From Terebella lapidaria (Eukaryota > Annelida > Polychaeta > Terebellida > Terebellidae), in contig OX424561.1 of NCBI GenBank assembly GCA_949152475.1, forward strand, positions 5,518,001-5,582,000: a stretch of DNA of 64,000 bases. Direction: 5' to 3'. Every line of letters begins with the position of its first letter. The first letter of the stretch is position 1. The translations under genes were made by a program, and so were the position numbers. Below are positions 9,941 through 64,000 of the stretch, piece by piece. The notes beneath the pieces were generated by a model. It had not been told where the DNA came from and did not search any database. It saw only the letters and a program-made list of their open reading frames with translations.

Positions 9941-9942
9941 TT

Positions 9943-18432: not shown

Positions 18433-18527
18433 ACGGCGACTATTTAAGATCCAAAATACTAACCATAGAGTTAAGAATATCCAATTATCTAAATATTCCA
18501 AAGTAAAAGTTTTCAGAAACAACCGAC

Positions 18528-20012: not shown

Positions 20013-20276
20013 CTTAGTGCGTATGGTTCTCTGTCGTTGGTTCTCGTCTCCGTTATGATTATCAATGATGGAGAGCAATCATCTCATATTTCATCGCTTT
20101 CGGCTGTTGGTCAGTTGTCTCCGTCATGACTACTGACAGCTGGGGGTGAACTCATTGAACTCATTTATCACCCTTGTGAATAGTTGTATATACTGTACAT
20201 ATAGCCAAGTTGGGCTCTAGTTTCATTTGGGGAACTTCAACATAATCTTTATGGAATAAACACAACCTAGTTTTTC
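20013..20276 (+). other. Gypsy-1 3' non-coding region
   Basis: Short untranslated stretch after the TatD ORF with an AATAAA near 20255. No further ORF. Confidence 0.6.
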
Positions 20277-20290
20277 AAAACGGGGAAGGG
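20277..20290 (+). promoter_or_regulatory. Gypsy-1 polypurine tract
   Basis: AAAACGGGGAAGGG directly abuts the 3' LTR and would prime plus-strand synthesis. It has one pyrimidine. Confidence 0.85.
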
Positions 20291-20590
20291 TGTAGTAGAA
20301 ACAGCTAGTAGAAACAGCAAGTGCTGCCACCTGGGGAATATAAACGAAATTTATCAAGTATTTAGTGCTGCCCCTATCGACTATAACCTCCGTCATCCCC
20401 CGTACGGTGCTGCCCCTGTGGGAGGAACACGAGATACAGGGTAGAAGAACGCCAACCCCCGAGAAGAACGGACCGGATCTCCGCTGCTGCTGATCGTTGC
20501 TGTGTCGGAGCCGCGGATTGCCGTTCTTGATTCCTTCTTCTCAACTTGTCACTGGTATTTATCCAAGTATTATAAACCAGTTATACTATA
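20291..20590 (+). repeat. Gypsy-1 3' LTR
   Basis: 300 bp, matching the 5' LTR at every position I compared; followed by the ACTG duplication. Confidence 0.95.
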
Positions 20591-30024: not shown

Positions 30025-30539
30025 CATTATAAAGCATAGGAGAATTTAACATGGGAAAGTCCCATTTGGGCCGAGTTTGGTCCAAAATGGCCCACTTCGA
30101 GCGATTCAAGCGCAACGAAATTTATAGACATTATAGGAGTACATACGAGGAGTCTTATGTATCAAAAAGAGAAAAAGTTACTGAACAGATTTTGAGAAAA
30201 TGGCCGCCAAAGTCCAAAATCAGGCATTTTTCGTCGAAAACGGCCGCCATTTTGAAAAAAATTCGAAAACCAAAAAACTAAAAAATACCTCCTTCTTGAA
30301 TTATTTTTAAGTATTTTTGTGCAAAATTTCAGAAAAATTCGCCCGTAAACAAAAAAGATAAAAATGTGGACGACGACGGACGACGACGGACGACGGACGA
30401 CGGACGCAACGCCATGCCAATAGGTTATCGGACCATAGGTCCGGTAACCTAAAAACGCCGTTGAAGTACAAGTCTGGAACATTATGACCTTCACGAAAAT
30501 GGTTGTACATAAGCATAAACACAAAGACTGCTGGGTAAT

Positions 30540-45106: not shown

Positions 45107-45123
45107 AAATGTAACAGTCAGAA

Positions 45124-45740
45124 CTATTCGTAGTAAGGTCGCACAAGACTGCTTGCCGGCCAGAGGTCTGGATCCAACAGCTGACTAGCATCGCGACGCG
45201 AGGCATGGATGTGGAACGAGCTGTACGAGTTGTACTTCGTCTGTACTGGCTCACATCTAACATGCAGTCCAGTCTCCATGAGAACGTGAGCAGATACGTC
45301 CTCTGGACGTGTATTCCGGGCAAGTCGAGACACGAAGACACCAGTGATGCGACGAACAGGCCGCTGCGAGTTTTTCTTGTATTTCTTTGCAGCAGTTAAA
45401 GCGAATCTGGTTCCACTGCCGATGATAACGTTCGCTCTCTCACGAGAATCACCAGCAGGATCACGATCCTGTGAATCCCGGTGTTTATGGGTTCGGTGAT
45501 TACGCTTGCCAACTACTGTGAACCTGATAGAAGAGGATTGCGTCGTGTGATCATTCGAGGACGTCGGGTGCGTGGACTTGAGTGCTGAGGAGTACCTCCG
45601 TCGGGATGTATGCTTCGTCAGAGGAGCGTGAGCATCAATATCGGAGTCGGTACTATCACTACTGTCACTAGACTCACTGTCACCTCCAGTAAGATCACCT
45701 CGGAAGCTGAAGATTGAACGACAATTTTCTTGTGTTGAGC
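45124..45740 (-). CDS. LINE-B ORF1, C-terminal half (after Gypsy-2 insertion)
   Basis: The frame that is cut at the Gypsy-2 target continues here without a stop to TAG at 45124. This half has a Ser/Asp-rich stretch, then a basic region and a C-terminal domain with RRITGVFVSRLARNT and GLHVRCEPV. ORF1 proteins of such LINEs bind RNA and form ribonucleoprotein with ORF2. Together with 59140-59983 the ORF is 486 codons with no other lesion. Confidence 0.8.
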
Positions 45741-45744
45741 ATAC

Positions 45745-46480
45745 TGTGACGAATATCGTTCACGGCCGATATCAAGCCGGTTTAACTGGGTCGTCGTGTG
45801 ATACAATAAGCCGGCAGTTTCAATTTAACTGTTTATTGTGGTGATAAAGACTGATGATCAATCACGCACAATCAGGGTCGCACTCTCACCTACGTCGGGT
45901 GATATCCCAGTCTATGTTTCTATATACTCCTAGTATAGTCCTTTATACAACTTGCACATATATCCGATAGATTATATATATTAATATCGACAGTCTCACA
46001 GGAGCTTCTTGTATACACGTCCTGCCACTGGGATTTACACTTCACTTCTGCGCAGTATACTGGGGCCGAGGGACCATGTGGCTGTGTAATTTCCCGCCAA
46101 GTGTAAGCGGTGTTGTGATAGGTTGAATGTGTGGTGCAATGCGCTGATGTCACCGGGAAAGTGGGTTTCCCCGGCTCGTGTCAATACTTGGAATGCCTGT
46201 ATGTGTGCACGTGATGTATGGAGTATGTGTGTCAAGTTCTATGTTTAGAAGTCAGTGCATGTGAAGGTCAAGGTCGAGTAAACGGGGCCGAGTGTACTGA
46301 GCTAGCGGGGCCGCAGGTGCGTGGTTTGACCTGTGTATGTAACCATGACTACATGGAGTTTATGCTTGTGATCGTATAGTGTGTACTTGTCCTGTATGTA
46401 AGTCATGTAGAATGAATGTTTGTTGTGGAAATGTGTAGTGCGCGGGAGGGACGGGAGTAACAGTCGCTAAAATTACTACA
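45745..46480 (-). repeat. Gypsy-2 3' LTR
   Basis: 736 bp, TG...CA ends. It matches the other LTR at a constant offset of 12,659 along its whole length. It contains five GGGYCG copies (plus strand). Confidence 0.95.
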
Positions 46481-46492
46481 TAACACCCCTTC
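46481..46492 (-). promoter_or_regulatory. Gypsy-2 polypurine tract
   Basis: On the minus strand GAAGGGGTGTTA abuts the 3' LTR; a short and imperfect purine tract. Confidence 0.6.
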
Positions 46493-46982
46493 ATTAATCC
46501 TACGCCCTCGGGATTACCCTCCCCGGACCCTACCGTCGCCAAAAACTAAACAATAAAAAGCTAAAAAGTCCTAAAGGTCAAACCCAAAAGCACTCACACA
46601 CACACGCCGCGCGAAATGAGAAAACACTTCATACAATAAAAATTCCTAACTGTCAAAATAAACGTCAGCAGTCAGTCCGTCAGCAGTCTCTACGATGATA
46701 CATATACAAATACATGCACAACAATGAATGGAATGTATGATATGGAATGAGAAACAAAACTCCTCGACGTTTCAAAGCGAAACGGAACTATAACTTTAAG
46801 AGTCTAATGAACTGAAATAAAATGTAGATTAAATTTAACTAAAATTACATGTATAAAAACAAAAAGCCATGACTAGGATATTAAATGTATATGTACACTA
46901 TTTACAATATATATATGCCGTGACCAGAATTGTTTGGTCACTCGGGGCCGCATCAAAGGGGCCGAACAGTTCGGGGTCGTAT
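46493..46982 (-). other. Gypsy-2 non-coding stretch between ORF3 and 3' LTR
   Basis: AT-rich, no ORF; GGGYCG copies cluster at 46940-46980, next to the ORF3 stop. Confidence 0.6.
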
Positions 46983-49781
46983 TTACTTGTCCTCCCGTTC
47001 ACGCCTGCTGGCGGGAGGAGGCGGGGCCGCTGGCGATGCCTGCCGCATCAGCTGTAGCTGTTCGTCCGGGGGTAGTCTGGGCAGGATGGACACGATCGTG
47101 GCCAACAACTCCCCCGGGATGGTCGGTGTGGTCGGGGTCGACGGAGCTTGTGCCTCCGATGGCGTCGGGGTCGAAGTCGCTCGAAGCCGAGTGATTTCCT
47201 GTCGTTGGTGGGCGACTTGGTCCTCCAACTGAGTCACACGGACTCGAAGCCGTAGATTTTCTTCGGACAGGGCGTCCGGGAACGTGGGCTGGTGGCGCTC
47301 GTGCAGAGCACCCATCCCAAAGCCGACAGACAGGCCGTTATATTCTGCCTGCCTGATGTGGTGATCCAGGGCCGACAGGTACTCCCGACGAATTAGTCGC
47401 AAGTACTGGTGCGCTAGATCATCAGCGCGGGCGAGTGACAGGGTCGGAAGGTGCTCCTCCGGTTCTGACGGCAGGAGCAAGGGGTCGGCATTATGGGCGG
47501 CCTGTTCGAGACGAGCCGTCCAAAAGTCCTCGTGAAATCCGAGGTAGTTCGGGAGCCGCTGGGCGTCCTCATCCCGTAGGAAGTCTGTGAGGTCGGGATT
47601 CTGGCCGGGTAGTGCCTGCAGGCCGGGAAGCGAGCGGGTCGCCAAACGTCTGCCGTGTTGCCGCAGGAACTGGAAATCGGCCGCGAACTCGCCGGATCCA
47701 TGAAGCGGCAGACGCTCGTCGAGGTCTCTGTGGAGTGACTCGAGCTGCTCTGGGTCGTCCACTTGGAGTCGGGGCCGGTCTCTATCGGTGCCGCGTGTCG
47801 GAACGGAGCGCAGAGGCTCCACTTCCTCCGTGAGGTACGGTGGGAGCGGGACGGGTTCCACCATCCGTCGTGAAGGCTCCGGTGAAGATTCCGGGGTCGA
47901 AAACGGTGTCGGGGTCGCACGTACAGGAGATCCGGGTGCAATCTCCCTGAGTGGAGGTGGCCGATCCTCAACTGGGCTCTTCGGCTCGGGAGTCTCCTTG
48001 CCGGTTGATGACGATACCGGTGTGGTATTCAGGGGTCGACTTGGGAGTGGCGGATACTCCTCAGGTGGAGGGACCAATCCCTCACGGACTCGGTAGTCCG
48101 TGACGTTAGAGGCCGTGGGTCGTTCCACAACCATCCGCCGGGGTATGATATCCGACGGCCGAGCTCTAGACGGGGTCGAAGATGTCACTGTGGTGACCGG
48201 TCGAGTTGTCGCTGGCGACACCACTGTCGCGAACGAAGCCGTCGTGACGACTGCCGAGGCCGAAACACCGGTGGTCGTTGTCGGGACCTCCTCCGCCGTG
48301 CTCACCGACGTTGTCTGATAATTTATGGGCCGAACGAAGAAGATCGTACTGGGTCGTCGAATTCGAACCCGCGTGTTCATGGTCTCGATGTCACTGACCA
48401 TGCGGGTAAGCCGAATCTCGTCTGCCGGGGTCGAAGCACGATTGTACTCCAGTCGACGGAGTACCTGTTGCACTTCCGGGGCCGAGTTGGGCGGATACTG
48501 CTCAAAGAGCTCTGGCGCCATGTGCCAGATGCCGAACGTCAGGACGGTGTTAACATCCCTCCTGAAGATCGGGATATTGGCCGGAACTCTTGGGGGTCGA
48601 TAATTCGGGTTCGGCTGCATGTCGACTCTGCAGCGTAGCGCGAACCTGACGAGCATGGGGCCGGATGCCGATAGTCGTCCTTCCTGGTAGAAGGGGAACG
48701 ACGTCACGTGCTGCGGGGTCGCTTGAGACAGATGCCGGAACATCTCCTCCTGGGCCAATGTCCGGAAGCCGTCGCGGGCCGGACACACGAAGTAGCGCAG
48801 GAACGGAAAATGATACGCTAGCACGTGCGCATCAAGACTCTGGGCCGTCCGAAAAGGTCCGCGTCGTGGCACGGAGGACCACTGTCGTTCTCCTGCTCCC
48901 TCCTCTTCGCCGATGCAGAAGGGGCACTCGAATCGACCGTCTCCACGCTGTAGCGGGGCCAATGTGAGGAGGTTTCCCTCCGACAGGGTCGACTGCTCAT
49001 CGAAGTTATGGATGTGGCCGTATCCAGCGCTCCGATTTCGCTTACTGAGTGGAACCTTGTTCCAGTCTATGGGCCGAGTTCCGTAGGGTGTCACGGGAGA
49101 TGGCACCAATTCCATCAATTCCGCCACTTGCCGACGGAAAGTCGAGGTCGGGGCCGTAATAGCAGATCCGCCGCTGGAGCGTGACGAACTGCTGGAGGTC
49201 GATCGGGCTCCCGCTCCATGCTTCTTCTTGAAAGAAGTATAAGTTCTCTTGTTTGGAGAACGGGAGGCCGCAGGTCGTGCTACCGCTGAACCGGAAGCGG
49301 GTGAAGTCGGGGCCGGAGCGATCGGGGCGATCACTTGATTTGCTGGGTCGGGTTGGCGGCTCGCGGTGGCGACTCGTTGAGCTTCTTGGGCCGCTTGTCG
49401 TGCTTCAATTGCACGCTGGACAATACTTCCGCCCTCCTCGAGTCGGCGGAAGCGTTCGGGGTCGATATTGAAGATATCGTCCGGAGTCGGGCTCGGTGTA
49501 TGGCGCTCTCCTCGTTGCGCCAGCTTGTTCCGGGCCGTTTTGGGTCGCGCTCCCTTTTCCGATCCACTTGCCGTGTCACTGAGCGTGACTGGATCGCGCT
49601 GTTCAGGCTGCGAGTCGGGGCCGGACGAAACTTCGTTGTCGGGGACGATTATGGGATGATCTGATTCATCCCCTGTGTCGATTACTTGGACAGTGATGTT
49701 ATCGCCGTCCAACTTAACTGTGCGGGGCCGATTGTCACCTGGGTCGCTATTTTCCCGGTCGTCTCCGGGTTTGTCAGCCAT
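46983..49781 (-). CDS. Gypsy-2 ORF3: accessory protein with zinc-finger-like and coiled-coil segments
   Basis: 932 aa, no stop, own ATG. An acidic, disordered N-terminus is followed by Ala/Arg-rich and Ser-rich tracts. At about residues 283-352 there is a paired finger-like motif: ECPFC, then LDAHVLAYH about 30 residues later, directly followed by FPFLRYFVC and ending MFRHL. A long Thr/Pro/Ser-rich linker follows, then a helical region and a coiled coil at about 830-870 (LRLRVRVTQLEDQVAHQRQE). There is no signal peptide or membrane helix, so it is not an envelope protein. No known family is recognised. The finger layout recalls the N-terminus of the Gypsy-1 TatD ORF (CPIC ... HVEEAH LPW ... 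C..C ... LKKHH). Possible roles are DNA binding, nuclear targeting or countering silencing; none is shown. Confidence 0.75.
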   Translation of the reverse strand: MADKPGDDRENSDPGDNRPRTVKLDGDNITVQVIDTGDESDHPIIVPDNEVSSGPDSQPEQRDPVTLSDTASGSEKGARPKTARNKLAQRGERHTPSPTPDDIFNIDPERFRRLEEGGSIVQRAIEARQAAQEAQRVATASRQPDPANQVIAPIAPAPTSPASGSAVARPAASRSPNKRTYTSFKKKHGAGARSTSSSSSRSSGGSAITAPTSTFRRQVAELMELVPSPVTPYGTRPIDWNKVPLSKRNRSAGYGHIHNFDEQSTLSEGNLLTLAPLQRGDGRFECPFCIGEEEGAGERQWSSVPRRGPFRTAQSLDAHVLAYHFPFLRYFVCPARDGFRTLAQEEMFRHLSQATPQHVTSFPFYQEGRLSASGPMLVRFALRCRVDMQPNPNYRPPRVPANIPIFRRDVNTVLTFGIWHMAPELFEQYPPNSAPEVQQVLRRLEYNRASTPADEIRLTRMVSDIETMNTRVRIRRPSTIFFVRPINYQTTSVSTAEEVPTTTTGVSASAVVTTASFATVVSPATTRPVTTVTSSTPSRARPSDIIPRRMVVERPTASNVTDYRVREGLVPPPEEYPPLPSRPLNTTPVSSSTGKETPEPKSPVEDRPPPLREIAPGSPVRATPTPFSTPESSPEPSRRMVEPVPLPPYLTEEVEPLRSVPTRGTDRDRPRLQVDDPEQLESLHRDLDERLPLHGSGEFAADFQFLRQHGRRLATRSLPGLQALPGQNPDLTDFLRDEDAQRLPNYLGFHEDFWTARLEQAAHNADPLLLPSEPEEHLPTLSLARADDLAHQYLRLIRREYLSALDHHIRQAEYNGLSVGFGMGALHERHQPTFPDALSEENLRLRVRVTQLEDQVAHQRQEITRLRATSTPTPSEAQAPSTPTTPTIPGELLATIVSILPRLPPDEQLQLMRQASPAAPPPPASRREREDK

Positions 49782-51230
49782 GCTGACGGGCCGAAATCAA
49801 GCCGAAGTACTTCCCAAGTACTGACTAGGCTGGCTGTAACAAAGTCTGGATTTCTTCAAAACCAGCCTAGTTCAAATGCCGATGATACAAGCCGAATTAA
49901 CTCCAAAGTCTTGTGACCAGGATTTCAATGATATCACAGTCTATAGGCCGATAAATATTGTTCGATTAGCACAGTTTCTATAACAATAGTCTGTATCTCA
50001 ATAGCCGAAACTTCTGACAATAGTCCTTCTCCTCCAAAGTCTCAGGCACAAGTGACCTGATTGCCGCTAATCTTCAATGCCGTACACAAAGATGCTGACA
50101 GCATCTCGATTCTTAGAACTGGGCCGGGGGGCGCTCTCTATATGTATAGAAAACGTCTTTACGCTATGTATCATTGTTCCAAGCGTACACACAGCAAGGC
50201 GGGGCCGTCGTCAAGGAAACGCGGGGCGATCCTTCTCTGACCTCTTGGGTCAGTCCATTACGACAGTAGGGGTGTCCTCACACTGTCCAGATTTCCGTAT
50301 GTCCATCTGCCGTCCCCTGGATAACTCGTGCCGAATCATTGTCTTTTTATACTAGTCGACTGTTCGGATTACTGGGCTCTTTTTTGCCCGACGACTCACT
50401 ATTGTAATTATTAGGGGAGACTTCATGTAGGTGCTGTAAACAGCTAAAATGTTTATTAGCGCTCGTGCGTGCCTTGTGAACTCATCAGTCCATCATTCCT
50501 TCTCCCACAAGTTAGCGCACAATAAACTACGGGGTCGAGTTGCTGTTTCACAGACGACACACAGTTATTAAAGGCTGAGATATGAATATCAATCGCTCAC
50601 AGGGGCGGACATCGTTCCATTCATTTTCAGCCAGTTCACAGGACGACGGGGCCGCAAATATTGTAGGGGTCGAAATTGCAATGATCTGGGTCGGTCACAC
50701 CGCGGCGCTTTGAATATTTTGGGTGATGAATTTGATGACAGGCCGCATCTTGGCATGATAGCTATGTAGTGACTGGTTCACGTACCACTGGGCCGTTCCT
50801 CCGAATATTACATGGAGTGGGTAGAGGCTCTGTCGACGCATACTCCAGAACGAATCACACTATCACCTCTTCGACAACTAAGTGGCCTTACTCACGGTGT
50901 GACTGGTTATTATCCTCTTCGGCTGGCACATGGATTGAAGCTTTACATGATAATCTTAGTCATTGCGTAACATACGCCTTGATCAATGGTACATGTTATA
51001 CGGGGTCGAAACACATATCATCATGCAACCAATTTTTCACCAGCATCATAATTATAATATCATATCTAGTGTGTATATATCGAATTTGCCTCACTGACAT
51101 CTTGTACATGTTAAATGCATATATTGTTATTGTAATATAATATATTATTATTGGGAAAGACATGATATCATAGTCCATTAGACATGCATAATTCATCATC
51201 AATGACATCAATCAGATAACAAGGCCGGGG
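49782..51230 (-). other. Gypsy-2 non-coding stretch between pol and ORF3
   Basis: 1.45 kb without a long ORF, yet carrying about ten GGGYCG copies. It probably holds the start or splice signals for the ORF3 messenger. The AT-rich end near 51040-51230 follows the pol stop. Confidence 0.55.
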
Positions 51231-54200
51231 TTATCTGTAGCGGGCCGGTCTGCGTGCGTGGCGTCTGGGTCGATTTGGTCGTGCAGGCGGGGGCGTAGCC
51301 TCGCTTGTCTCGGGGTCGGAAGATACCACAGGTTTTTGCCTGCGTGTCTTGCGTGCCGGTTTTGGAGTGTCGGAACTTGATCTGTGTGATCTTTTCCGTT
51401 GCCGATGTCGACTTGAGCCGGATGAGGTCGGAGATCGCGATTGACGATCCTGGGTCGTTTGCGAATCAGACTCTGCTGTTTGGTCTGAATCAGTATGCCG
51501 ATCTTGGACTGTTACCTCCCAAGGGTAATAGAACTCCTTGAGAAGTCCCATGGGGTCGGGTGACTGTTCTGGGTCGGACTTGCTTGACGACGACGTGGGT
51601 CGTACAGGGTCGGAGTAGATGTGGGCCGCTTGGTTGTCACCTTCGTATGGCTTGAGCACATCCAGATGAACAACACGAGTGTTCCGAGGGTTGGAAACCA
51701 GGGCGATTCGGTAATCAACCTCGGTTACACGGTCGATGATCCTCCAGGGACCAGTCCAGGGCCGAGCGAACTTATTATTCTGCGTGAGTGGCAGATAATA
51801 ATACCGGACCAGTTCGCCTGGTTGAAACTGGGGTCGTGGTTTCGCGTGGGCGTCATAACCCATCTTTTGCCGAATTGCCGCTTTCTCGAGATGGTCTTGT
51901 GCGAAACCGTGGGCCGTTCTGATGGCTTGCCGCAAATACTCCACATACTCCGGACCACACGGAGGTAGAGGCTCAGGGTCGTAGGTCGGAAACATGAGGT
52001 CGACTGGCAAGTTACACTCGTGTCCATACACCATCAGATGCGGGGTGCATCCCGTGGACGAGTGTACTGAGGTTCGATAGGCCATTAACACATATGGCAA
52101 GTGCAAGTCCCAATCGTTTGCACGATCGCTGACGAACGCACTCAGCATGTTGAGCAATGTCCTGTTGAATCGCTCAACCTGGCCGTCGCTCTGGGGTCGG
52201 TATGGGGTCGTACGAATCTTCTTAGCGCCCAGTAGACGCACAACATGCCGGAACAGGGACGACTCAAACTCAGTACCTTGATCGCTATGGACCGCTTTGG
52301 GGACACCGTGGTAGACTATCCACCGATTCACCAGGGTGTCGGCAACATTTTTGGCCGTATGTCGCCGTAGCGGAAAAGCGTCAGTGTACTTCGTGAAGTA
52401 GTCCGACACGACTAGCACATACCGATAGCCTCTTCCCGTGACCTTGTGGGTGTCGAGGATGTCCATCGCTATTCTGTCGAACGGCGCTCCTGTCGGTAGC
52501 TGTGTCAGGGGCGATCTTTTTGGGGCCGGTTTACCCTTGCGGGTCACACATTGCGGGCAGCGGGCACACCAGCGGGCGACGTCCAGCGCCAAGCCGGGCC
52601 AGTAGAATCGGCGCCTGACTCTCTCGATGGTACGCTGTATGCCGAGATGTCCGACAATCTTGAGGTCGTGTAGTTGGTGCAGAACTTGTGTCCTGAGTGC
52701 TACGGGGAGCACGGTTTGCACCACGGGCCGTCCAGCAGGGTCGGGTTTTATATGTCGAACTAGCACACCGTCTTGTAGCGCCAGGAGGTTCCAGCGGGAA
52801 ACAAGTGTCTTTACCTCCTCTCCTTGGCGGGCGACTTCTCGTGAGTCGGGCTTGGTGCCGGCTAGTATCCATTGCCGCACTTTTCCGACGCTGGGGTCGG
52901 CTTGCTGTGCCGCGACAATGTCCTGGGTCGAATAGTCCGAAAGCCACTTTTGTCCATCAAGTGTGGCGTCCAAAGCACGGACTCGAACAACTTGGCGTGC
53001 CGAAACTAGCTGGGGCAAGACCGGTGATGTTATCGAATCACTGTCCAGGAGGTCTGCCCTTGTCTGGGTCGGAACAACAGTTATCCGACGAACTGGAAGT
53101 TCTCCGGAACTTGTTTCTGGGTCGGTCGGAGGTGTGACGAGTCGTCCGGGACAGTCTTGGTGTTTGCAACTGTGGCACCGTGACAAGCCGTCGGCGTTAC
53201 CGTGTAATTTTCCGGGTCGATGCTCTATCCGAAAGTCATACTGCTGTAGCTTGGCGAGCCACCTAGCGAGCATGCCGTCGGCGTCGCTGTAGTTTTTCAG
53301 CCACCTTAGCGAGCTATGGTCGGTTCGGAGGAGGAATTTCCTACCCCAGAGGTAGTGCCGATAGTGTTGCACCATCTCAACTACTGCCAGTAGTTCCCGA
53401 TAGGTGGTGCAATAGTTCCGCTGGGTCCGGGACAGGGTCTTGCTGGCGAACCCGATGGGGATCTCCTTCCCGTCAACCCTTTGTGAGAGGGCTCCTCCCA
53501 CAGCAAAGCCGCTTGCATCCGTATCGAGGATGAAGTAGTCCTCCGGATTCTGGGTCGGATGAGCGAGCTTGGGCGCCTTGATGAGGGCGTCGCGGAGTCG
53601 CTGGAAAGCTCGTCGCTGGGCCGGTCCCCAAGTGAAGTGGCATTCACCTCGGGTAAGCGCTACGAGAGGTTCAGCGATCTCAGCGTAGTCCTTGATGAAT
53701 CGCCTGTGGTAGTTGGCGAAACCAAGGAAAGCCCTGACGTCGGTGATCTCGCACGGGGTCGGCCATTCTCTGATGGCTTTGACTTTGTTGGGGTCGACTC
53801 GGATTCCTTGGCCGCTCACTATGAACCCTAAGTACAAGATTTCCCGTTGAAATAACTCACACTTCTTGGGCTGAAGTTTCAGGCCTGCCGATCTGATTCG
53901 ATCCAGGACCGCTTCCAGGTTTGCGAGTGCCTGGTCGAATGTTCTGCCGTAAGCTATCACGTCGTCGAGATAGCACATACACCGGGTCCACAAGTAACCA
54001 CGGAGTATGGTCTCCATAAGCCGTTCGAAGGTTGCCGGGGCGTTGCTAAGGCCGAATGGCATGACCTTAAACTGATAGAGTCCCTTCCTTGTGGCGAAGG
54101 CAGTCTTCGGTCTGTCGCTGGGGTCGACTTCAACCTGCCAGTAGCCAGAGGCCAGGTCTAGGGCCGAGAAGTAGTTGGCGCCTGCCAGGGCGTCATGAGT

Positions 54201-55766
54201 ATCCTGAATGTTGGGCAAGGGATACGAATCCTTGCGGGTGACGTCATTCAGGAGCCGATAGTCGACACAGAAGCGTACCTGTCCGTTCTTCTTCCGCACG
54301 AGCACTACCTGTGCGCTCCAGGGCGAATCGGACGGCTCAATACACCCCAAGCGGAGCATCTTGTCGATCTCCTCGTCGATGATGCTTTGCTGTGCCTGAG
54401 GGACGCGTCGCTGTCGTTGTCGAATTGGGGCCGAGTTGCCGGTGTCGATTCTATGCTGGACGACTTGGGTCCGTCCCAGTTGGCCGTCTGGGTGCATAAA
54501 TGTGTCCTGGTATTGGTGAACCAGGTTGGCGCAACGCCGATGCTGTTCCGGCGCTAGTCCGGCGCGATCCACCATTTCTTGTAGATGTGGCGGTAGGTCG
54601 CGGTAGTGACTGGCGTCTACCGTGGCCGGGTCGGGCTCCTCTCCGGGTCGTGGCAGAGCTCCGACGACACTTTCGACAGGGCTTGCTATGGCGACAGGGT
54701 CGGAACGGGTGAGCGTAATGCCGGTATCTGCTGGATTGACTACCGACACCTTTACGCACTGCCGATTCAGGGTCGTAAGTGTTCTCCCCATGATGAGGTC
54801 GGTTTCCTCGGGAAAGGTCGTAAGTGGCTGGACTATCCTCGGGTGTTGTCGAACTCGAACTCGGGAAGTCGGGACCAGCTCCACTATTGCTTCGCTGCGT
54901 GCGGGGACGGTGACAGCTCGTCGCACGGCCATTCTGACAACATTGGCCTCAATGTCTTTATGGGCGAACAGGATTTCTTTGTGTACCTGTATCGTCCCTT
55001 CACCGTAATTCACTACAGCGTGAGCTTGCCGAAAAAAGTTCATGCCGAGAATCATGTCGTCATGTATGTCAGCCACACAAAAGGTTACGACCATATGGTT
55101 AGTTCCGACCTGTATTGAGAGGTCGATCAGTCCATCGATCGGGCTTGACTGTCCGGTGACGTCACGAATAATAGCCGAAGTAGACCGCAAATGTCGCTGG
55201 TCAGCGGGGACGTGACGTAGCTGATCGCGTCGGAGCAGAGAGATCTGCGCTCCGGAGTCGAGTACAGCCTTTATCGTCTTGTTTCCGACGTGTACCGGCA
55301 ACTTCCAGCATTTGTGATTGGTGGCGCTGGAGTTGTTGATGACAGCCGGAATTTCGGGGTCGTCTAGCGGTGGCCGGAAGAGTGTGTGCAGAGGCGGCAG
55401 TTTGGATTCCGGTCCACTCGGAAAAGCGTAGAATCCTCCATCGTCGGAGATCCACTCGATCTCGGACATGCTGTCCGTTCCGGTGCCGTTGGCGGTCGGG
55501 GGTGACACCCCTTCAGGACGACGGTCTCCACGTGGTGGTCGCTGTGGCCGCGGTGCGGACACCCCTTCATGAAAAGAGGCCGATTTCGGGGTCGGAGCTT
55601 GACATTTTGTACACACCCCTTCAAGGAGCTGAGGTGTGGGCTGGGCCGGCTGCGGGGTCGTTATTGGTGTCGTTACCGGTACAGTAGTCGTGACAACCGC
55701 AGATGTGGAGCGGGGAACGTTGTCCTGTTGTCTGGAAGGTCCTTGCTCCTCAGCACCTTCCCCCAC
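51231..55766 (-). CDS. pol: Gypsy-2 pol: protease, RT, RNase H, integrase (complete)
   Basis: 1511 residues from the first GTG in frame; it overlaps gag by 94 bp in the -1 frame, so a ribosomal frameshift is expected, though I see no canonical slippery heptamer (a G-run at 55757-55763 is the best candidate). Domains: protease DSGAQISLL at about 169; RT with FCVDYRLLND, FSALDLASGYWQVEV and YLDD at about 600; RNase H with FILDTDASGFAVGG at about 745; integrase HHCC (HQLHDLKIVGHLG ... CARCPQC) at about 1030-1070; core with IAMDILDTH (D, ~1100), VHSDQGTEFE (D, ~1160) and DGQVERFNRT (E, ~1197); a GPW-type C-terminal domain (GPWRIIDRVTEVDYRIAL); and a basic tail. All catalytic residues are present. 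Confidence 0.95.
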   Translation of the reverse strand: MGEGAEEQGPSRQQDNVPRSTSAVVTTTVPVTTPITTPQPAQPTPQLLEGVCTKCQAPTPKSASFHEGVSAPRPQRPPRGDRRPEGVSPPTANGTGTDSMSEIEWISDDGGFYAFPSGPESKLPPLHTLFRPPLDDPEIPAVINNSSATNHKCWKLPVHVGNKTIKAVLDSGAQISLLRRDQLRHVPADQRHLRSTSAIIRDVTGQSSPIDGLIDLSIQVGTNHMVVTFCVADIHDDMILGMNFFRQAHAVVNYGEGTIQVHKEILFAHKDIEANVVRMAVRRAVTVPARSEAIVELVPTSRVRVRQHPRIVQPLTTFPEETDLIMGRTLTTLNRQCVKVSVVNPADTGITLTRSDPVAIASPVESVVGALPRPGEEPDPATVDASHYRDLPPHLQEMVDRAGLAPEQHRRCANLVHQYQDTFMHPDGQLGRTQVVQHRIDTGNSAPIRQRQRRVPQAQQSIIDEEIDKMLRLGCIEPSDSPWSAQVVLVRKKNGQVRFCVDYRLLNDVTRKDSYPLPNIQDTHDALAGANYFSALDLASGYWQVEVDPSDRPKTAFATRKGLYQFKVMPFGLSNAPATFERLMETILRGYLWTRCMCYLDDVIAYGRTFDQALANLEAVLDRIRSAGLKLQPKKCELFQREILYLGFIVSGQGIRVDPNKVKAIREWPTPCEITDVRAFLGFANYHRRFIKDYAEIAEPLVALTRGECHFTWGPAQRRAFQRLRDALIKAPKLAHPTQNPEDYFILDTDASGFAVGGALSQRVDGKEIPIGFASKTLSRTQRNYCTTYRELLAVVEMVQHYRHYLWGRKFLLRTDHSSLRWLKNYSDADGMLARWLAKLQQYDFRIEHRPGKLHGNADGLSRCHSCKHQDCPGRLVTPPTDPETSSGELPVRRITVVPTQTRADLLDSDSITSPVLPQLVSARQVVRVRALDATLDGQKWLSDYSTQDIVAAQQADPSVGKVRQWILAGTKPDSREVARQGEEVKTLVSRWNLLALQDGVLVRHIKPDPAGRPVVQTVLPVALRTQVLHQLHDLKIVGHLGIQRTIERVRRRFYWPGLALDVARWCARCPQCVTRKGKPAPKRSPLTQLPTGAPFDRIAMDILDTHKVTGRGYRYVLVVSDYFTKYTDAFPLRRHTAKNVADTLVNRWIVYHGVPKAVHSDQGTEFESSLFRHVVRLLGAKKIRTTPYRPQSDGQVERFNRTLLNMLSAFVSDRANDWDLHLPYVLMAYRTSVHSSTGCTPHLMVYGHECNLPVDLMFPTYDPEPLPPCGPEYVEYLRQAIRTAHGFAQDHLEKAAIRQKMGYDAHAKPRPQFQPGELVRYYYLPLTQNNKFARPWTGPWRIIDRVTEVDYRIALVSNPRNTRVVHLDVLKPYEGDNQAAHIYSDPVRPTSSSSKSDPEQSPDPMGLLKEFYYPWEVTVQDRHTDSDQTAESDSQTTQDRQSRSPTSSGSSRHRQRKRSHRSSSDTPKPARKTRRQKPVVSSDPETSEATPPPARPNRPRRHARRPARYR

Positions 55767-58342
55767 TGGTTTGACGACGGGGTCGGAGGTGTTGGTGGGG
55801 CCGGTTTAGTTTGGTTACCGGTTTGGTTAGGTACTGACAACACTTGAGCTGTCCTTCTGTCAGTACCGGGACCATTGGGCCGAAATGCTAGCGGTTTCAT
55901 GCCGTTACGTACTAGCACATCCTTAAGCCGAAAGCACCGCATCCAGCGATGGCCGGGCTTCTTGCAAAAGAAGCAAACCATGGGTCGTCCGGGTTGCGGG
56001 GGTCGATCACCTTTCATCGGGGCCGTTGTTCGTAGGACAGAGAAGATAGCCGTTTCCTCGCACAGTCCATTCTCGTCACTAAGGACGCACTGGAAGGCTT
56101 CAGCCACCCACTCGCGTGAGCTGGTTGGCACTGAGTGTTCGTCGCAACCTTGTAGGCCGGTAGTGTCACTGTCCGCGGGGTCGTAGTAGGCCGCAATTTG
56201 CTCTGGGGTTAGTGTTTCCCCCTGAGTGACTTGTCCCATGGCACAGGACAGTTCCTCATTGACAGGGTCGTCTTCCGCGTATCCGCTTGCGGAAATGTCA
56301 GCACGTCGTGTGCCTCGATGTCGATCTCTGGCTGTCCTCTGTTGACGACTCTCTACCTTGAGAACGGCCGTAAGTGCCTCACTGTAACTGTTAAAAGTGA
56401 GGGCACACAGTTTATCGGCAATGGGGTCGGGTTGGCCGTTCACGAATTGCGCAATTACAGTTCGTTGCCGCGACGTTGGCGTAACGTCGTCGAACACTTG
56501 CTCCGCCAGGGCCTGGAGTCGCTCCATGTAGTGTTCCGCGTCCTCTTTTCGTTCCCGCTTGAGGAACGGGAAATCGTCCCGTTTGGACTGTCGACGGGGC
56601 TCGGGTTCCCAGCCCTCTAGGAGTTGGCGACGGAACTCTCCCCAGGGAGTTGCGACCGGGATATTGAGAGCTAGCGCTTCAGCGCGGCCGCGTAGCGTGC
56701 TCCGGAAGGTCGTCGTCTTGTTGAGGTCGGAGTAAGTAAAGGCCGCAGCGAATTGTTCGAAACTCCGAACGTATTGAGTGAGATTGCCCTCCTTAAAGGT
56801 CGCACGCCATTGAGCCATCTTAGCCGTAGCCAACGTTTGGGGCTCAGACGTGAGTCTCTGTGGCGTGGGCGTGTCAGCACTCACCGCAACTGGTGTAGTC
56901 GCTGTAGTGGCCGTCGGAGTCGGAACAGCCGAAGTCGCTGGAGCCGTCGTATCTGGGCCGATCGGGGTCGCGTTAGCGGGGGCGGTCGGTGCTGTCGTCG
57001 CGGAGACGGCGAGCGATGCGGCGGGTGGTGCCGTCGTGTGGCTGGGGTCGTGTGGTGCTTGTGCAGCGAGGGCCGGTTGACTGTATGGAGGCGTCACCCA
57101 TGGTATCCCGACTGAGGGTGGGAATACAGCCGGTGGTGGATATCGGTATACCGATCCATCCGGGCATACACCATGGTACACTAATCCGGGTTGTGTACCA
57201 TGATAGCCGGTGTCAGCGATCACGCTGGGAACGCCACCATATCCAGGCGGTGGGTTCGCGTAGCCGACATGCGGTGAATAGTATCCGACAGCTACTCCAT
57301 TTGGAACACCGCTTGTTGCGCCAGGGTATCCGACTGGCGGTACACCATATCCGTTGGTGTTTCCGACTGATTGTGAGATCGGAGGTCCGATCATTTGCAC
57401 AACACTTTCTGCCGGAGCAGACACAACTTGATCTTGCGACGGATCGAAGCGCGGTTGTTCTCCGGTAGTCGGCGATGGTCGGTGCGTGGTCGGCGCGGGA
57501 GCGCGTGTGTCGGAAGTCGGCGTGTCGGGGTCGCAGGGTCGGCGACTTGATGTCGAGGGTGCTTGTCGGGGTCGCGCTTGTCGCATGGTGGCGCGAGGTT
57601 CCGCCGTTGTGTCGCTGGGTCGTTGTTGTCGTAGCGGCGTCGCGATCCGGGTAGCGGTCGTCATCAGGATGTCTTCGGATGTCGCACCCGTCTGGCTGGG
57701 TCGTGTGTACTCTACCACCGTAGGCTCGGTCGGTATGCGTGAGTACATTTCTGGCGCGGGGCCGTGTTGTCTCGGCGTCATGGACGGCGCCAGGGGTCGA
57801 TTGGCCGAATAAGCGTTCGGCGGGGTCGATTCCGGAACATTGTCAGACTGACAAACCCACTGTCGTATCCGAGAGTTACTTGGTGGGTGCGTAACCATTG
57901 ACGTGTCTATGGTTACCGGCCGAACGTCCACTGCTAATTGTTCTGGGTCGATATCACAATCTACGCTCGCTCTTTGACGTGAGCGCGTATAGTTTCTGTC
58001 GGCAAAGTCACTTTTCTGGGTCGCTCTAGCCGGCGTGGCCGAGTACGCTCTAGCGTGCGCACGCAGAATGTCACTTACTGTATGTGACGGGTCGAGCGGG
58101 TCTTCGTCTAGGAACTCCTGCACCAGGTCGGTAGGCGGCGAAAACGATCTCAGGGACGAATGGTCGCCAATGGAGTCGAAAAGGCCGGACGGTTGTTGCT
58201 CCTGCGACAGTGGAACTGTATCGCTCATGGCAACTGAGCGAGGGCCGGAAGGTCGGAAGGCCGAATTCGGATTGATCGTCACTTCATCATCCGTAGGGTC
58301 GAGTGGCTCACCGCGGGAGGCTCCCGGGGCCAATGCCATCAA
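55673..58342 (-). CDS. gag: Gypsy-2 gag
   Basis: 889 aa from ATG at 58342, only 61 nt from the 5' LTR. Disordered Thr/Pro-rich N-terminus; a Gly/Tyr/Pro-rich low-complexity stretch at about 325-420 (GYPGATSGVP, VGYANPPPGYGG); a retrotransposon capsid region at about 507-665 (MAQWRATFKEGNLTQYVRSF); and a CCHC zinc knuckle CFFCKKPGHRWMRC near 790. It forms the particle and binds genomic RNA. The GY-rich stretch could promote condensation, which is inference. The end overlaps pol. Confidence 0.92.
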   Translation of the reverse strand: MMALAPGASRGEPLDPTDDEVTINPNSAFRPSGPRSVAMSDTVPLSQEQQPSGLFDSIGDHSSLRSFSPPTDLVQEFLDEDPLDPSHTVSDILRAHARAYSATPARATQKSDFADRNYTRSRQRASVDCDIDPEQLAVDVRPVTIDTSMVTHPPSNSRIRQWVCQSDNVPESTPPNAYSANRPLAPSMTPRQHGPAPEMYSRIPTEPTVVEYTRPSQTGATSEDILMTTATRIATPLRQQRPSDTTAEPRATMRQARPRQAPSTSSRRPCDPDTPTSDTRAPAPTTHRPSPTTGEQPRFDPSQDQVVSAPAESVVQMIGPPISQSVGNTNGYGVPPVGYPGATSGVPNGVAVGYYSPHVGYANPPPGYGGVPSVIADTGYHGTQPGLVYHGVCPDGSVYRYPPPAVFPPSVGIPWVTPPYSQPALAAQAPHDPSHTTAPPAASLAVSATTAPTAPANATPIGPDTTAPATSAVPTPTATTATTPVAVSADTPTPQRLTSEPQTLATAKMAQWRATFKEGNLTQYVRSFEQFAAAFTYSDLNKTTTFRSTLRGRAEALALNIPVATPWGEFRRQLLEGWEPEPRRQSKRDDFPFLKRERKEDAEHYMERLQALAEQVFDDVTPTSRQRTVIAQFVNGQPDPIADKLCALTFNSYSEALTAVLKVESRQQRTARDRHRGTRRADISASGYAEDDPVNEELSCAMGQVTQGETLTPEQIAAYYDPADSDTTGLQGCDEHSVPTSSREWVAEAFQCVLSDENGLCEETAIFSVLRTTAPMKGDRPPQPGRPMVCFFCKKPGHRWMRCFRLKDVLVRNGMKPLAFRPNGPGTDRRTAQVLSVPNQTGNQTKPAPPTPPTPSSNQWGKVLRSKDLPDNRTTFPAPHLRLSRLLYR

Positions 58343-58379
58343 TGCCGGTCAGGTCTGGGTCGATAATCCGAGACTAGCT

Positions 58380-58403
58380 CAGATCCTGGTCGAACGGCGC
58401 CAA
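58380..58403 (-). promoter_or_regulatory. Gypsy-2 primer-binding site (tRNA not assigned)
   Basis: On the minus strand the sequence immediately following the 5' LTR is TTGGCGCCGTTCGACCAGGA. The TGGCGCC start is as in many retroelement primer sites, but I cannot name the tRNA with confidence. Confidence 0.6.
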
Positions 58404-59139
58404 TGTGACGAATATCGTTCACGGCCGATATCAAGCCGGTTTAACTGGGTCGTCGTGTGATACAATAAGCCGGCAGTTTCAATTTAACTGTTTATTGTGG
58501 TGATAAAGACTGATGATCAATCACGCACAATCAGGGTCGCACTCTCACCTACGTCGGGTGATATCCCAGTCTATGTTTCTATATACTCCTAGTATAGTCC
58601 TTTATACAACTTGCACATATATCCGATAGATTATATATATTAATATCGACAGTCTCACAGGAGCTTCTTGTATACACGTCCTGCCACTGGGATTTACACT
58701 TCACTTCTGCGCAGTATACTGGGGCCGAGGGACCATGTGGCTGTGTAATTTCCCGCCAAGTGTAAGCGGTGTTGTGATAGGTTGAATGTGTGGTGCAATG
58801 CGCTGATGTCACCGGGAAAGTGGGTTTCCCCGGCTCGTGTCAATACTTGGAATGCCTGTATGTGTGCACGTGATGTATGGAGTATGTGTGTCAAGTTCTA
58901 TGTTTAGAAGTCAGTGCATGTGAAGGTCAAGGTCGAGTAAACGGGGCCGAGTGTACTGAGCTAGCGGGGCCGCAGGTGCGTGGTTTGACCTGTGTATGTA
59001 ACCATGACTACATGGAGTTTATGCTTGTGATCGTATAGTGTGTACTTGTCCTGTATGTAAGTCATGTAGAATGAATGTTTGTTGTGGAAATGTGTAGTGC
59101 GCGGGAGGGACGGGAGTAACAGTCGCTAAAATTACTACA
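58404..59139 (-). repeat. Gypsy-2 5' LTR
   Basis: 736 bp, the same as 45745-46480. Because the element is on the minus strand, this copy drives transcription leftward. Confidence 0.95.
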
Positions 59140-59983
59140 ATACCTTAGGAGGAGAGGACGTCTGGTTTTTCATAGAGTCAGTGTCTATCATATCCTGACC
59201 TTGAACGGGCTGTGCGTTAGACATGAACCAAGCTGCGTGTTTTGACACTGTTTCTGACACAGCTGTCTGAGCACGAATAGATGACGTGAACCCTTCCTCC
59301 AAAATTATCACTTGTTGCTGCAGTTTCTCCATACTGTTCACCAGAGAGGAAACATCAAAGTTACTAGGGCTCAAAGGTGGGAGTTTGCAAAGATCTCTCG
59401 CGACATAGACAGGAAGAGATGATACTGGTAGCTCCAGTAAAATGTTAAGTATATCCTGTAAATCATTCTGCTTTTTGTTGCTACCCCGTCGCTTTATTTT
59501 TCGAGGGGGTTGAGAGCCAACAAAAGCAGAATCAAAGAGCGTGTCCTTGGCTGACTCAATGTCCTGTTCAGAGTAGAAATCAAGACATAATTTCACCAAC
59601 ATGTCGTATGCCATGGTTGACATTTTGCAGACTAGGAAGCACAATAGCTCTGAGACCACAAAATCACAAGATTTAGATCCGTATTGGGCAGCCTCACAAT
59701 CACCAGTGGTGCTGCTGGATACATCCCTCGCAGTCTGATGATCAGGGTTATCCAGTCGATCAGTGGACGAGGCAGCAGTAGCAGAGGAGATGTCGTAGGA
59801 ATACTTGGAATCCTTCACATTGTGTGTATGTAGACACGGCTCACAGAGTAACTCGTCACCATTAGATAGCTTAAGGTTTGGGCCTCCTTTACCACATTGT
59901 TCACAGTTTTTCTCTCTGCCTGATCCAGGGCCTCCATATGGACGCGGCATGATAATTGCATGCAACTCGCCAGATGGCGCCAC
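59140..59983 (-). CDS. LINE-B ORF1, N-terminal half (before Gypsy-2 insertion)
   Basis: About 281 codons from ATG at 59983. A cysteine motif (CEQCGKGG ... LLCEPCLHTH) near residues 27-52 looks like a small zinc-binding module. It is followed by a Ser/Thr-rich stretch, a helical domain (YDMLVKLCLDFYSEQDIESAK) and a coiled-coil-like segment (SMEKLQQQVIILEEGF). The frame runs into the LTR for two codons and stops there; the true continuation is at 45740. ORF1 proteins package LINE RNA. Confidence 0.8.
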
Positions 59984-63270: not shown

Positions 63271-64000
63271 ATTATAATGATGTATAGATGTATGTTTAGC
63301 CAGAGACTTTCTCCACAGTACACCAACGCCGCCATATGGTCGGCCAGTTACGATATTTTCACAAGTGACCATGCTACTTATCCCTTGACCAATAAAATCA
63401 TTATCTACAGTTAAAACAATCCAACTCATCACTTCTGAGCCAATGTTCTTGAATAAAAATGATATCGTATGATTGACACAATTTTTTAATGTCAAAAACT
63501 GATGATTTGAATCCATAGCAGTTCCAGGTTATAGTTTTAATATTGAAAGTTCTGGACACAACATGGAACACAAATGTAACGGTCAGAACTATTCGTAGTA
63601 AGGTCGCACAAGACTGCTTGCCGGCCAGAGGTCTGGATCCAACAGCTGACTAGCATCGCGACGCGAGGCATGGATGTGGAACGAGCTGTACGAGTTGTAC
63701 TTCGTCTGTACTGGCTCACATCTAACATGCAGTCCAGTCTCCATGAGAACGTGAGCAGATACGTCCTCTGGACGTGTATTGCGGGCAAGTCGAGACACGA
63801 AGACACCAGTGATACGACGAACAGGCCGCTGCGAGTTTTTCTTGTATTTCTTTGCAGCAGTTAAAGCGAATCTGGTTCCACTGCCGATGATAACGTTCGC
63901 TCTCTCACGAGAATCACCAGCAGGATCACGATCCTGTGAATCCCGGTGTTTATGGGTTCGGTGATTACGCTTGCCAACTACTGTGAACCTGATAGAAGAG
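63271..64000 (-). mobile_element. Second LINE-B copy, lost on its 3' side, runs off the window
   Basis: It matches 44807-45535 at about 98-99%; the part from 63537 differs from 45072 onward at only three or four bases in about 460. It includes the start of ORF2 (with a 2-bp loss near 63410 that breaks the frame) and the C-terminal part of ORF1. On the minus strand everything 3' of the early endonuclease is missing, the reverse of the usual 5' truncation. Confidence 0.88.

What the first reader, a model, noticed from the sequence alone, without database searches (positions are those of the whole stretch)
45745..59139. One-strand dispersed hexamer GGGYCG saturates Gypsy-2
By eye I count about 77 GGGTCG and 45 GGGCCG on the plus strand in 13.4 kb (chance about 6-7 in total), in both LTRs, gag, pol, ORF3 and the non-coding gap, while the reverse complements CGACCC/CGGCCC seem nearly absent on that strand. 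In coding parts the motif uses all three frames (read as RP, DP or (N)TP), so codon choice does not explain it. The enrichment stops at the LTR edges; LINE-B around it lacks it. A dispersed, oriented short motif throughout a transposon, with an accessory finger-like protein, parallels plant VANDAL elements, whose VANC proteins bind short dispersed motifs to lift silencing. The function here is inference.
Basis: partly seen in the sequence, partly recalled or inferred. Interest (0 to 1): 0.88.

Follow-up and report, generated by a model that had tools for sequence, protein, structure and literature searches.

The report
Retrotransposons with family-specific dispersed hexamer codes
A jumping gene in an animal genome has one short DNA word written about 120 times along its coding strand and never on the other, and a sister family has rewritten much the same genes with a different word, which points to a private self-recognition code, perhaps read by a protein that the element itself makes.

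Summary
Confirmed, and it goes further. Gypsy-2 (45745-59139, minus strand) carries GGGTCG 77 and GGGCCG 45 times, the reverse complements 0 times; dinucleotide shuffles give 15.2 (max 29 of 500) and 6.5. In RNA sense the word is CGRCCC. It exceeds synonymous-codon shuffles in gag, pol and ORF3 in all three frames, and dinucleotide shuffles in the LTR and two gaps.
Sister families in the same genome have Pol 79-93% identical to Gypsy-2; two (G3, G4) have a homologous, faster-diverging ORF3 (50-60% over aligned parts). G4 uses CGRACT (58 coding sites against 17) and has CGRCCC at chance; Gypsy-2 has CGRACT at chance; G3 uses TTCGGC beside CGRCCC. Gypsy-1 and a LINE show nothing comparable.
So this is a selected, family-specific, strand-reading code. 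The Gag zinc knuckle is nearly unchanged between families; ORF3, with a C2H2-like finger, is not, and is the best candidate reader. The strand rule favours reading of sense RNA. VANC-like DNA anti-silencing is a strong rival, supported by little CpG decay in coding but hardly in non-coding parts. Function is inferred, from one copy each of G3, G4 and G5.

The parts
45745..59139 (-). Gypsy-2, Ty3/Gypsy LTR retrotransposon carrying 122 CGRCCC (sense), 0 GGGYCG (sense)
58404..59139 (-). 5' LTR, 736 bp, 5 motifs
   Evidence: 100% identical to 3' LTR; motif 5 vs 0.3 by shuffle
45745..46480 (-). 3' LTR, 736 bp, 5 motifs
45741..45744 (.). target site duplication ATAC, left copy
59140..59143 (.). target site duplication ATAC, right copy
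58385..58402 (-). probable tRNA primer binding site, begins TGGCGCC
   Evidence: sequence one base after the 5' LTR; assignment inferred
46486..46492 (-). probable polypurine tract GAAGGGG
   Evidence: sequence before the 3' LTR; assignment inferred
55673..58342 (-). gag frame (889 aa from TTG; true start not determined), 26 motifs
   Evidence: no Pfam hit
55934..55975 (-). Gag zinc knuckle CFFCKKPGHRWMRC (CX2CX4HX4C), nearly unchanged in sister families
51231..55766 (-). pol: aspartic protease, RT, RNase H, integrase; 38 motifs
   Evidence: Pfam PF13975, PF00078, PF17917, PF17919, PF17921, PF00665
49782..51230 (-). non-coding gap between pol and ORF3, 9 motifs
   Evidence: 9 vs 0.48 by shuffle
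46983..49781 (-). ORF3, 932 aa, 35 motifs; candidate reader of the code
   Evidence: homologues in families G3 (60%, part) and G4 (53%); no Pfam, PDB or outside relatives found
48810..48926 (-). C2H2-like finger of ORF3 (CPFC ... F-x5-L-x2-H-x4-H; L for F in G4), Cys/His invariant in G2, G3, G4, helix residues vary
   Evidence: alignment; coordinates
46481..46982 (-). non-coding stretch between ORF3 and 3' LTR, 3 motifs
   Evidence: 3 vs 0.08 by shuffle

Best explanation
Gypsy-2 and its sister families carry a dispersed, family-specific recognition code on the sense strand, kept by selection on the nucleotide sequence itself and laid over genes and non-coding parts alike. The code marks the element's own transcript as 'self'. 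Its most likely reader is the protein of the element's third ORF, which has a C2H2-like finger and has diverged between families much faster than Pol and the Gag zinc knuckle. Shown by sequence: the motif, its strand, its excess over codon and composition nulls, its family specificity, the co-occurrence with ORF3.
For: Selection on the word: 99 coding sites against 25 by synonymous shuffles, all frames; where the protein allows the word it is used at 25 of 39 RP, 31 of 39 DP/GP and 43 of 86 NCG places; LTR and gaps enriched on their own. Strand rule: 122:0 in G2, 49:0 for CGRCCC in G3, 86:1 for CGGAC in G4; several reverse-complement words are below synonymous shuffles (GGGYC 0 vs 13.6; GTCCG in G4 1 vs 8.0). 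Family-specific word (300 shuffles each): CGRACT in G4 gag/pol/ORF3 14/22/22 against 4.6/5.6/6.6, in G2 1/4/2 against 1.4/3.9/2.5; CGRCCC in G4 5/4/0 against 4.6/4.0/3.6; TTCGGC in G3 pol/ORF3 12/15 against 1.9/2.6. Between G2 and G3 pol, 16 CGRCCC sites are G2-only and 1 G3-only, while TTCGGC is 1 and 8, so the drift has opposite directions. One host with several words argues against a single host reader. Reader: Gag knuckle CFFCKKPGHRW[MI]RC shared by G2, G3, G4; ORF3 identities 50-60% against Pol 80-93% among the same three.
Against: No binding data. Predicted local RNA accessibility of the motif does not differ from same-composition hexamers in G2, G3 or G4. Not all reverse-complement words are depleted: in G3 GCCGA 18 vs 17.2 and GCCGAA 2 vs 2.9, in G4 AGTCC 7 vs 7.0, in G2 CTGG 42 vs 38.6; TTCGGC in G3 is 29:3, not strict. 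Words that would pair with the motif only through G-U are not depleted in G2. Single sites are not conserved above background between distant families: 2 of 18 G2 sites with the same amino acids remain in G4, where GC-rich hexamers in general keep 14%. In the part of G3 gag that was read CGRCCC is near chance (5 vs 3.9). Little CpG decay in coding parts fits a DNA role at least as well. G5, whose sampled copy lacks most of ORF3, still has CGRACT in pol (17 vs 5.2). Gag as a whole is not excluded: only its knuckle region was compared in all three, and G2-G3 Gag is 77% over 483 aligned residues. Only four families from one genome were compared, and ORF3 divergence may partly reflect recombination (codon difference at identical residues 0.61 in ORF3 against 0.28 in pol for G2-G3).
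Confidence: 0.42

Rival explanations
1. VANC-like anti-silencing on DNA: ORF3 binds arrays of the word in the integrated double-stranded DNA and removes or blocks CpG methylation and silent chromatin on its own family only.
For: Family-specific words with a co-diverging accessory protein, as in VANDAL21/VANDAL6 (PMC5735166, passages read). Every family's word holds a CpG. CpG o/e 1.08-1.11 in G2-G5 against 0.72 (Gypsy-1), 0.67 (LINE) and a median of 0.80 (range 0.58-1.02) in 16 stretches; codon-boundary CpG 0.94-1.09 (G2 gag, pol, ORF3 and G4 pol) against 0.48-0.59 in Gypsy-1 and 0.54 in the LINE. Among 8 Gypsy-2 copies CpG transitions are 21 of 116 two-allele variable sites, about 1.7 times the rate of other transitions, far from strong hypermutation. 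VANC motifs are also arrayed in one orientation.
Against: Orientation is 122:0 with random spacing and no tandem repeats, so it was selected site by site, which double-stranded binding does not require. The word fills coding sequence; VANC motifs are mainly non-coding. In non-coding parts the CpG contrast is small: G2 LTR 0.94 and gap 0.92, G4 gap 0.88, against 0.91 in the Gypsy-1 LTR stretch and 0.82 in its leader, and TpG is raised in the G2 LTR (1.32) and G4 gap (1.43). High CpG could also reflect GC content, codon selection, the CpG in the word (G2 without it: 0.98) or recent arrival from another host.
Confidence: 0.3
2. Dispersed packaging signals read by Gag: the word is bound by the nucleocapsid part of Gag during particle assembly.
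For: Sense strand only and spread over the whole genomic RNA; dispersed packaging signals with a shared recognition motif are proposed in RNA viruses (PMC6281560, passages read).
Against: The zinc knuckle and the 14 residues after it are almost identical in G2, G3 and G4 although the words differ. Packaging signals there are stem-loops; no sign of structured presentation here. Other parts of Gag do differ and were not tested.
Confidence: 0.1
3. A host RNA- or DNA-binding factor is the reader; families differ because they use different host factors.
For: G5 keeps CGRACT although its sampled copy lacks most of ORF3; dispersed export elements in intronless mRNAs are a recalled idea (search listing only).
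Against: At least three words in one genome among close relatives; the two unrelated elements tested in the same host (Gypsy-1, one LINE) show no word of this strength.
Confidence: 0.1
4. A mutation bias or compositional effect of reverse transcription made the hexamer.
For: The sense strand is C-rich (29.9% C, 20.4% T), so some excess is compositional.
Against: Dinucleotide shuffles and order-2 Markov models do not give it. Of 32 one-mismatch neighbours 24 are at or below the synonymous-shuffle mean; CGACCT, CGGCCA and CGGCCT exceed it most, by less than CGACCC and CGGCCC do. Sister families with 81-93% identical Pol prefer different words.
Confidence: 0.03

Closest known systems
VANDAL21/VANDAL6 elements and VANC proteins of Arabidopsis (DNA transposons)
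   Same: Element-encoded accessory protein; short motif in one orientation at high density; related families with different motifs.
   Different: Here an LTR retrotransposon of an animal; motif in coding and non-coding sequence, in all frames, without tandem repeats; no DUF1985; reading level and function unknown.
Dispersed packaging signals of RNA viruses (MS2 and others)
   Same: Many sites with one recognition motif over the whole genomic RNA.
   Different: There stem-loops read by coat protein; here a linear word, about 120 sites, with a conserved Gag knuckle and changed word.
Chi sites of bacteria (recalled, no call)
   Same: Oriented short word, embedded in codons, differing between species.
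   Different: Read by a recombination helicase on DNA; here confined to one element family inside a genome.
Drosophila gypsy insulator with su(Hw) sites (recalled, no call)
   Same: Ty3/Gypsy element with repeated short binding sites.
   Different: A single local cluster read by a host zinc-finger protein; no whole-element code.

Membership tests
Ty3/Gypsy LTR retrotransposon | identical LTRs, TG...CA ends, short target duplication | tested here: met
   736-bp LTRs 100% identical, TGTGACG...TACTACA, ATAC duplication
Ty3/Gypsy LTR retrotransposon | PR-RT-RNase H-IN order in pol | tested here: met
   Pfam hits in that order
VANDAL/VANC anti-silencing system | VANC-type protein (DUF1985; recalled) | tested here: not met
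   ORF3 has no Pfam family at E 1e-3; at E 1 only two weak coil-type matches below cut-off
VANDAL/VANC anti-silencing system | motif mainly in non-coding regions, grown by tandem repeats | tested here: not met
   99 of 122 sites coding; 0 tandem arrays in 45745-59139
VANDAL/VANC anti-silencing system | related families have different motifs together with diverged accessory protein | tested here: met
   G2, G3, G4 words and ORF3 identities; three families with ORF3 only
VANDAL/VANC anti-silencing system | protein binds the motif in DNA and causes loss of methylation | not testable with these tools
   only indirect and mixed: little CpG decay in coding, small contrast in non-coding parts
Dispersed packaging signals | motif presented in local RNA structure | tested here: inconclusive
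   accessibility equal to same-composition hexamers; stem-loops not modelled one by one
Dispersed packaging signals | capsid protein binds the motif | not testable with these tools
   against: Gag knuckle conserved while word changes

The most novel reading that the evidence does not exclude
The ORF3 proteins read family-specific words on the nascent sense RNA of their own copies and keep those copies expressed and unmethylated: a transposon-made mirror image of piRNA-guided co-transcriptional silencing, with the address written as a hexamer code across the element's own genes and changed from family to family. This joins the strand rule, the even spread over the whole transcript, the stop at the LTR edges, the little CpG decay in the genes and the fast ORF3 divergence.
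Probability: 0.16. Interest if true: 0.96.

Novelty: new variant of a known kind. Interest (0 to 1): 0.86.

Why it matters
Sequence-specific self-recognition by a transposon's own protein has been worked out for plant VANDAL elements; if it has arisen independently in animal LTR retrotransposons, and is written into the codons of every gene, it would be a second, much denser form of such a code. The families give a ready experiment: similar Gag knuckle and Pol, different word, different ORF3. That makes it directly testable whether an element protein reads the word, on RNA or DNA, and whether it shields the element from silencing. It also warns that synonymous sites in transposon genes can be under strong, family-specific selection.

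Tried and rejected
Composition, codon choice and protein sequence as causes: rejected by dinucleotide, low-order Markov and synonymous-codon nulls. Helical or nucleosomal spacing: no clear periodicity at the ten periods tested (largest 0.13 at 200 bp against about 0.09 expected), spacing like random placement (CV 1.04, null 0.83-1.18; the count of spacings under 8 bp there is not comparable, as the word cannot overlap itself freely). A second motif in G2 after masking CGRCC: only weaker words, several sharing its CGGC core, such as CGGCTT 17:0. RNA accessibility: no difference. Selection among young copies: 117 variable of 7529 ungapped columns in 8 of the 31 listed copies, 4 in motif columns where their share of columns predicts 5.8: no signal. 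Homology of ORF3 to Gypsy-1's ORF3: none by profile comparison. Structure of the ORF3 finger region from one sequence: pLDDT 29, useless, not searched further. ORF3 relatives outside: none among the 7991 and 7989 candidates scored in two protein searches, none in the PDB. Pol relatives in IMG/VR: none confirmed. A wider set of Gypsy clades from this genome could not be drawn: judged by place and open-frame length, queries P0016, P0026 and P0038 listed mostly the same families (a few frame lengths were not assigned); the one new place fetched is a close relative of G4 (98% Pol); P0061 did not complete. Whether the ORF3 deletion of G5 is shared by other copies was asked and never answered. Literature: eight searches, of each of which the 2-10 best hits with the start of their abstracts were seen (two searches had 6 and 2 hits in all, the others 13 to 1,513); none of those listed looks like a report of such a code in an LTR retrotransposon. 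Only passages of PMC5735166, PMC10398659 and PMC6281560 were read.
Full report
The element. Gypsy-2 lies on the minus strand at 45745-59139, with two 736-bp LTRs that are 100% identical and a 4-bp target duplication ATAC. Its frames are gag (55673-58342), pol (51231-55766, with protease, RT, RNase H and integrase by Pfam), a 1.45-kb gap and ORF3 (46983-49781, 932 aa, no Pfam family). The window lies in an unnamed 762-Mb genome; a Pol query listed 31 places, all that were scored of 15,693 first-look candidates, each 100% identical after rounding and without stops. The family is young.

The observation. GGGTCG occurs 77 times and GGGCCG 45 times on the plus strand; both reverse complements occur 0 times. 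In RNA sense the word is CGRCCC. Dinucleotide shuffles give a mean of 15.2 (maximum 29 of 500) on the enriched strand and 6.5 on the other, where none of 500 reaches zero. A motif model grown from the data gives CGRCCC followed by C/A and G, with a graded set of sites: hits above a log-odds of 5 are 154 sense to 4 antisense in the element counted with one LTR, against 12 to 10 in Gypsy-1. Sixteen 10-kb stretches of the genome, at places I chose by round numbers, give 0.22 sites per kb per strand. Eight further Gypsy-2 copies, 7.5 kb each, have 60-62 sites on the coding strand and 0 on the other.

Not codons, not protein. Shuffling synonymous codons inside each gene keeps protein and codon usage; gag has 26 sites against 8.3, pol 38 against 9.8, ORF3 35 against 7.2, each above the maximum of 300 shuffles and above the mean in each of the three frames. 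Where the amino acids permit the word, it is used at 25 of 39 RP, 31 of 39 DP/GP and 43 of 86 places of the third kind. Non-coding parts show it alone: LTR 5 against 0.3, pol-ORF3 gap 9 against 0.48, ORF3-LTR gap 3 against 0.08. Spacing is like random placement and there are no tandem arrays. The word therefore arose and is kept site by site.

The strand rule is active, though not for each piece of the word. Against synonymous shuffles Gypsy-2 has GGGYC 0 against 13.6, GGYCG 12 against 28.7, CGGG 18 against 40.0 and the full GGGYCG 0 against 3.8 (1.3% of shuffles reach zero), while GGGA (38 against 36.0), GGGG (17 against 17.4), CTGG (42 against 38.6) and TGGG (21 against 24.6) are not clearly depleted. 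In G4, GTCCG is 1 against 8.0 but AGTCC 7 against 7.0; in G3, GGYCG is 11 against 24.0 but GCCGA 18 against 17.2; in G5 GTCCG is 2 against 4.9, not clear. Words that would pair with the motif only through G-U are not depleted in G2 (GGGTT 6 against 4.9, GGTTG 8 against 7.9); in G4 one of seven is (GTTCG 4 against 10.4). Pairing avoidance in RNA is thus not clearly the cause.

Sister families have other words. Queries with Pol relatives found further families in the same genome. G3 (L028) has Pol 92.5%, Gag 77% (483 residues) and ORF3 60% identical to Gypsy-2 (the stretch ends within ORF3); G4 (L029, L031) has Pol 81% and ORF3 53%; G5 (L030) has Pol 79% to Gypsy-2 and 85.5% to G4, and only the two ends of an ORF3 in the copy sampled. 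All are strongly one-sided: in G3 CGRCCC 49:0 and TTCGGC 29:3, in G4 CGGAC 86:1, in G5 CGGAC 37:3 from visible counts. The leading words against synonymous shuffles over the coding frames held are: Gypsy-2 CGACCC 67 against 17.0 and CGGCCC 32 against 8.4; G3 TTCGGC 28 against 5.0, TCGGCA 25 against 5.7, CGGCCT 17 against 4.0; G4 CGGACT 33 against 8.7 and CGAACT 25 against 7.6. Gene by gene (gag/pol/ORF3): CGRACT in G4 14/22/22 against 4.6/5.6/6.6, in Gypsy-2 1/4/2 against 1.4/3.9/2.5; CGRCCC in G4 5/4/0 against 4.6/4.0/3.6; in G3 CGRCCC 5/23/12 against 3.9/7.3/3.9, so the part of gag read is near chance; TTCGGC in G3 1/12/15 against 0.2/1.9/2.6, and also raised in Gypsy-2 gag and pol (6 and 5 against 0.8 and 1.4); CGRACT in G5 pol 17 against 5.2. 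The words look related: CGRCCC and CGRACT differ at two positions. Gypsy-1, another LTR element of the window with 300-bp identical repeats at its ends, and a LINE have no word of this strength: best z 4.8 and 4.4 against 14.4 in Gypsy-2. Small one-sided counts do occur there (GATCGT 11:0 in Gypsy-1).

The genes were recoded. In aligned pol, 38 Gypsy-2 sites meet 18 places where G4 has the same amino acids over the word, and the word is kept at 2; for G5 it is 15 and 0. GC-rich hexamers in general are kept at 14% between G2 and G4, so single sites are not held longer than background over that distance; the surplus is held by turnover. Between closer families they are held somewhat more: 19 of 28 for G2-G3 against 58%, and CGGAC 13 of 24 for G4-G5 against 30%. 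Between Gypsy-2 and G3, 22 sites are shared, 16 are Gypsy-2 only and 1 is G3 only; for TTCGGC the counts are 4, 1 and 8. The two families differ in opposite directions in one conserved gene, which speaks against a shared mutation bias.

Several words in one host among close relatives point to readers made by the elements. The Gag zinc knuckle with the 14 residues after it is almost the same in the three families (CFFCKKPGHRW[MI]RC[FY]RLKD[VI]LVRNGMKP); the rest of Gag differs more and is not excluded. ORF3 is the most divergent of the proteins compared. It keeps CPFC and HVLAYH with the [FL]-x5-L-x2-H-x4-H spacing of a C2H2 finger (spacing rule recalled) and differs at helix residues between the families. 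That this finger contacts the word is inference. ORF3 has no relatives among the candidates scored in the protein collection, in Pfam or in the PDB.

RNA or DNA. A strict strand rule at randomly spaced sites is natural for RNA or single-stranded reading and not required for duplex binding; this favours RNA. Against it, predicted accessibility does not differ from controls in three families. In favour of DNA, these families show little CpG decay: CpG o/e 1.08-1.11 in G2-G5 (Gypsy-2 0.98 without the word's own CpG) against 0.72 in Gypsy-1, 0.67 in the LINE and a median of 0.80 (0.58-1.02) in 16 stretches; at codon boundaries 1.01, 1.09, 0.96 (pol, gag, ORF3 of Gypsy-2) and 0.94 (G4 pol) against 0.48-0.59 in Gypsy-1 and 0.54 in the LINE. 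In non-coding parts the contrast is small: 0.94 and 0.92 (G2 LTR, gap) and 0.88 (G4 gap) against 0.91 and 0.82 in Gypsy-1, with TpG raised to 1.32 and 1.43 in the G2 LTR and G4 gap. Among 8 Gypsy-2 copies, CpG transitions are 21 of 116 two-allele variable sites and of 88 transitions, about 1.7 times the rate at other positions. This is what lasting freedom from methylation could leave, but GC content, codon selection or recent arrival from another host could do it too. I put RNA reading by ORF3 at 0.42 and DNA anti-silencing at 0.30; a nascent-RNA version would unite both.

Known systems. In VANDAL elements, VANC21 binds YAGTATTAY arrays that are mainly non-coding, in one orientation, and spread by tandem repeats, and VANC6 has other words (PMC5735166, passages; PMC10398659, passages). 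The logic matches: private word, private protein, drift of both. The placement, the mode of growth and the protein do not. Dispersed packaging signals (PMC6281560, passages) share the many RNA sites but are stem-loops read by coat protein. Among the papers listed I saw none on a whole-element, one-strand code in an LTR retrotransposon; the lists were short and abstracts only.

Limits. One genome; one copy each of G3, G4 and G5, and a 3.9-kb pol piece of a near relative of G4; no expression, binding or methylation data; further clades could not be fetched. The family-level statement rests on the four families named.

Noticed in passing
18528-20012 (+): Third ORF of Gypsy-1 carries a TatD-type DNase domain (PF01026, E 1.2e-46) after an N-terminal stretch with Cys/His pairs; unusual cargo for an LTR retrotransposon.
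   Followed up: partly
9640-20590: Gypsy-1, a second Gypsy element on the plus strand with a 301-bp exactly matching repeat at both ends, no word of comparable strength but strong CpG decay in its genes (codon-boundary CpG 0.48-0.59).
   Followed up: partly
L030:6026-6531: G5 copy with an ORF3 reduced to its two ends (about 110 and 75 aa), the middle with the finger missing; a natural test of the word without its candidate reader.
   Followed up: partly
L028 (reverse strand, about 1500-1970): The sampled G3 copy has its Gag frame interrupted before the zinc knuckle, which continues in another frame; described only.
   Followed up: no
7258-8181 (-): Interferon-inducible GTPase-like gene (IIGP, PF05049, E 2.2e-48).
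   Followed up: no
28964-30033: Array of 133-134 bp spaced direct repeats, 62-91% alike to the reference copy.
   Followed up: no
42458-45106 and 63271-63708: LINE with endonuclease-RT ORF; its start region (44804-45243) recurs nearly unchanged 18.5 kb away on the other side of Gypsy-2.
   Followed up: no
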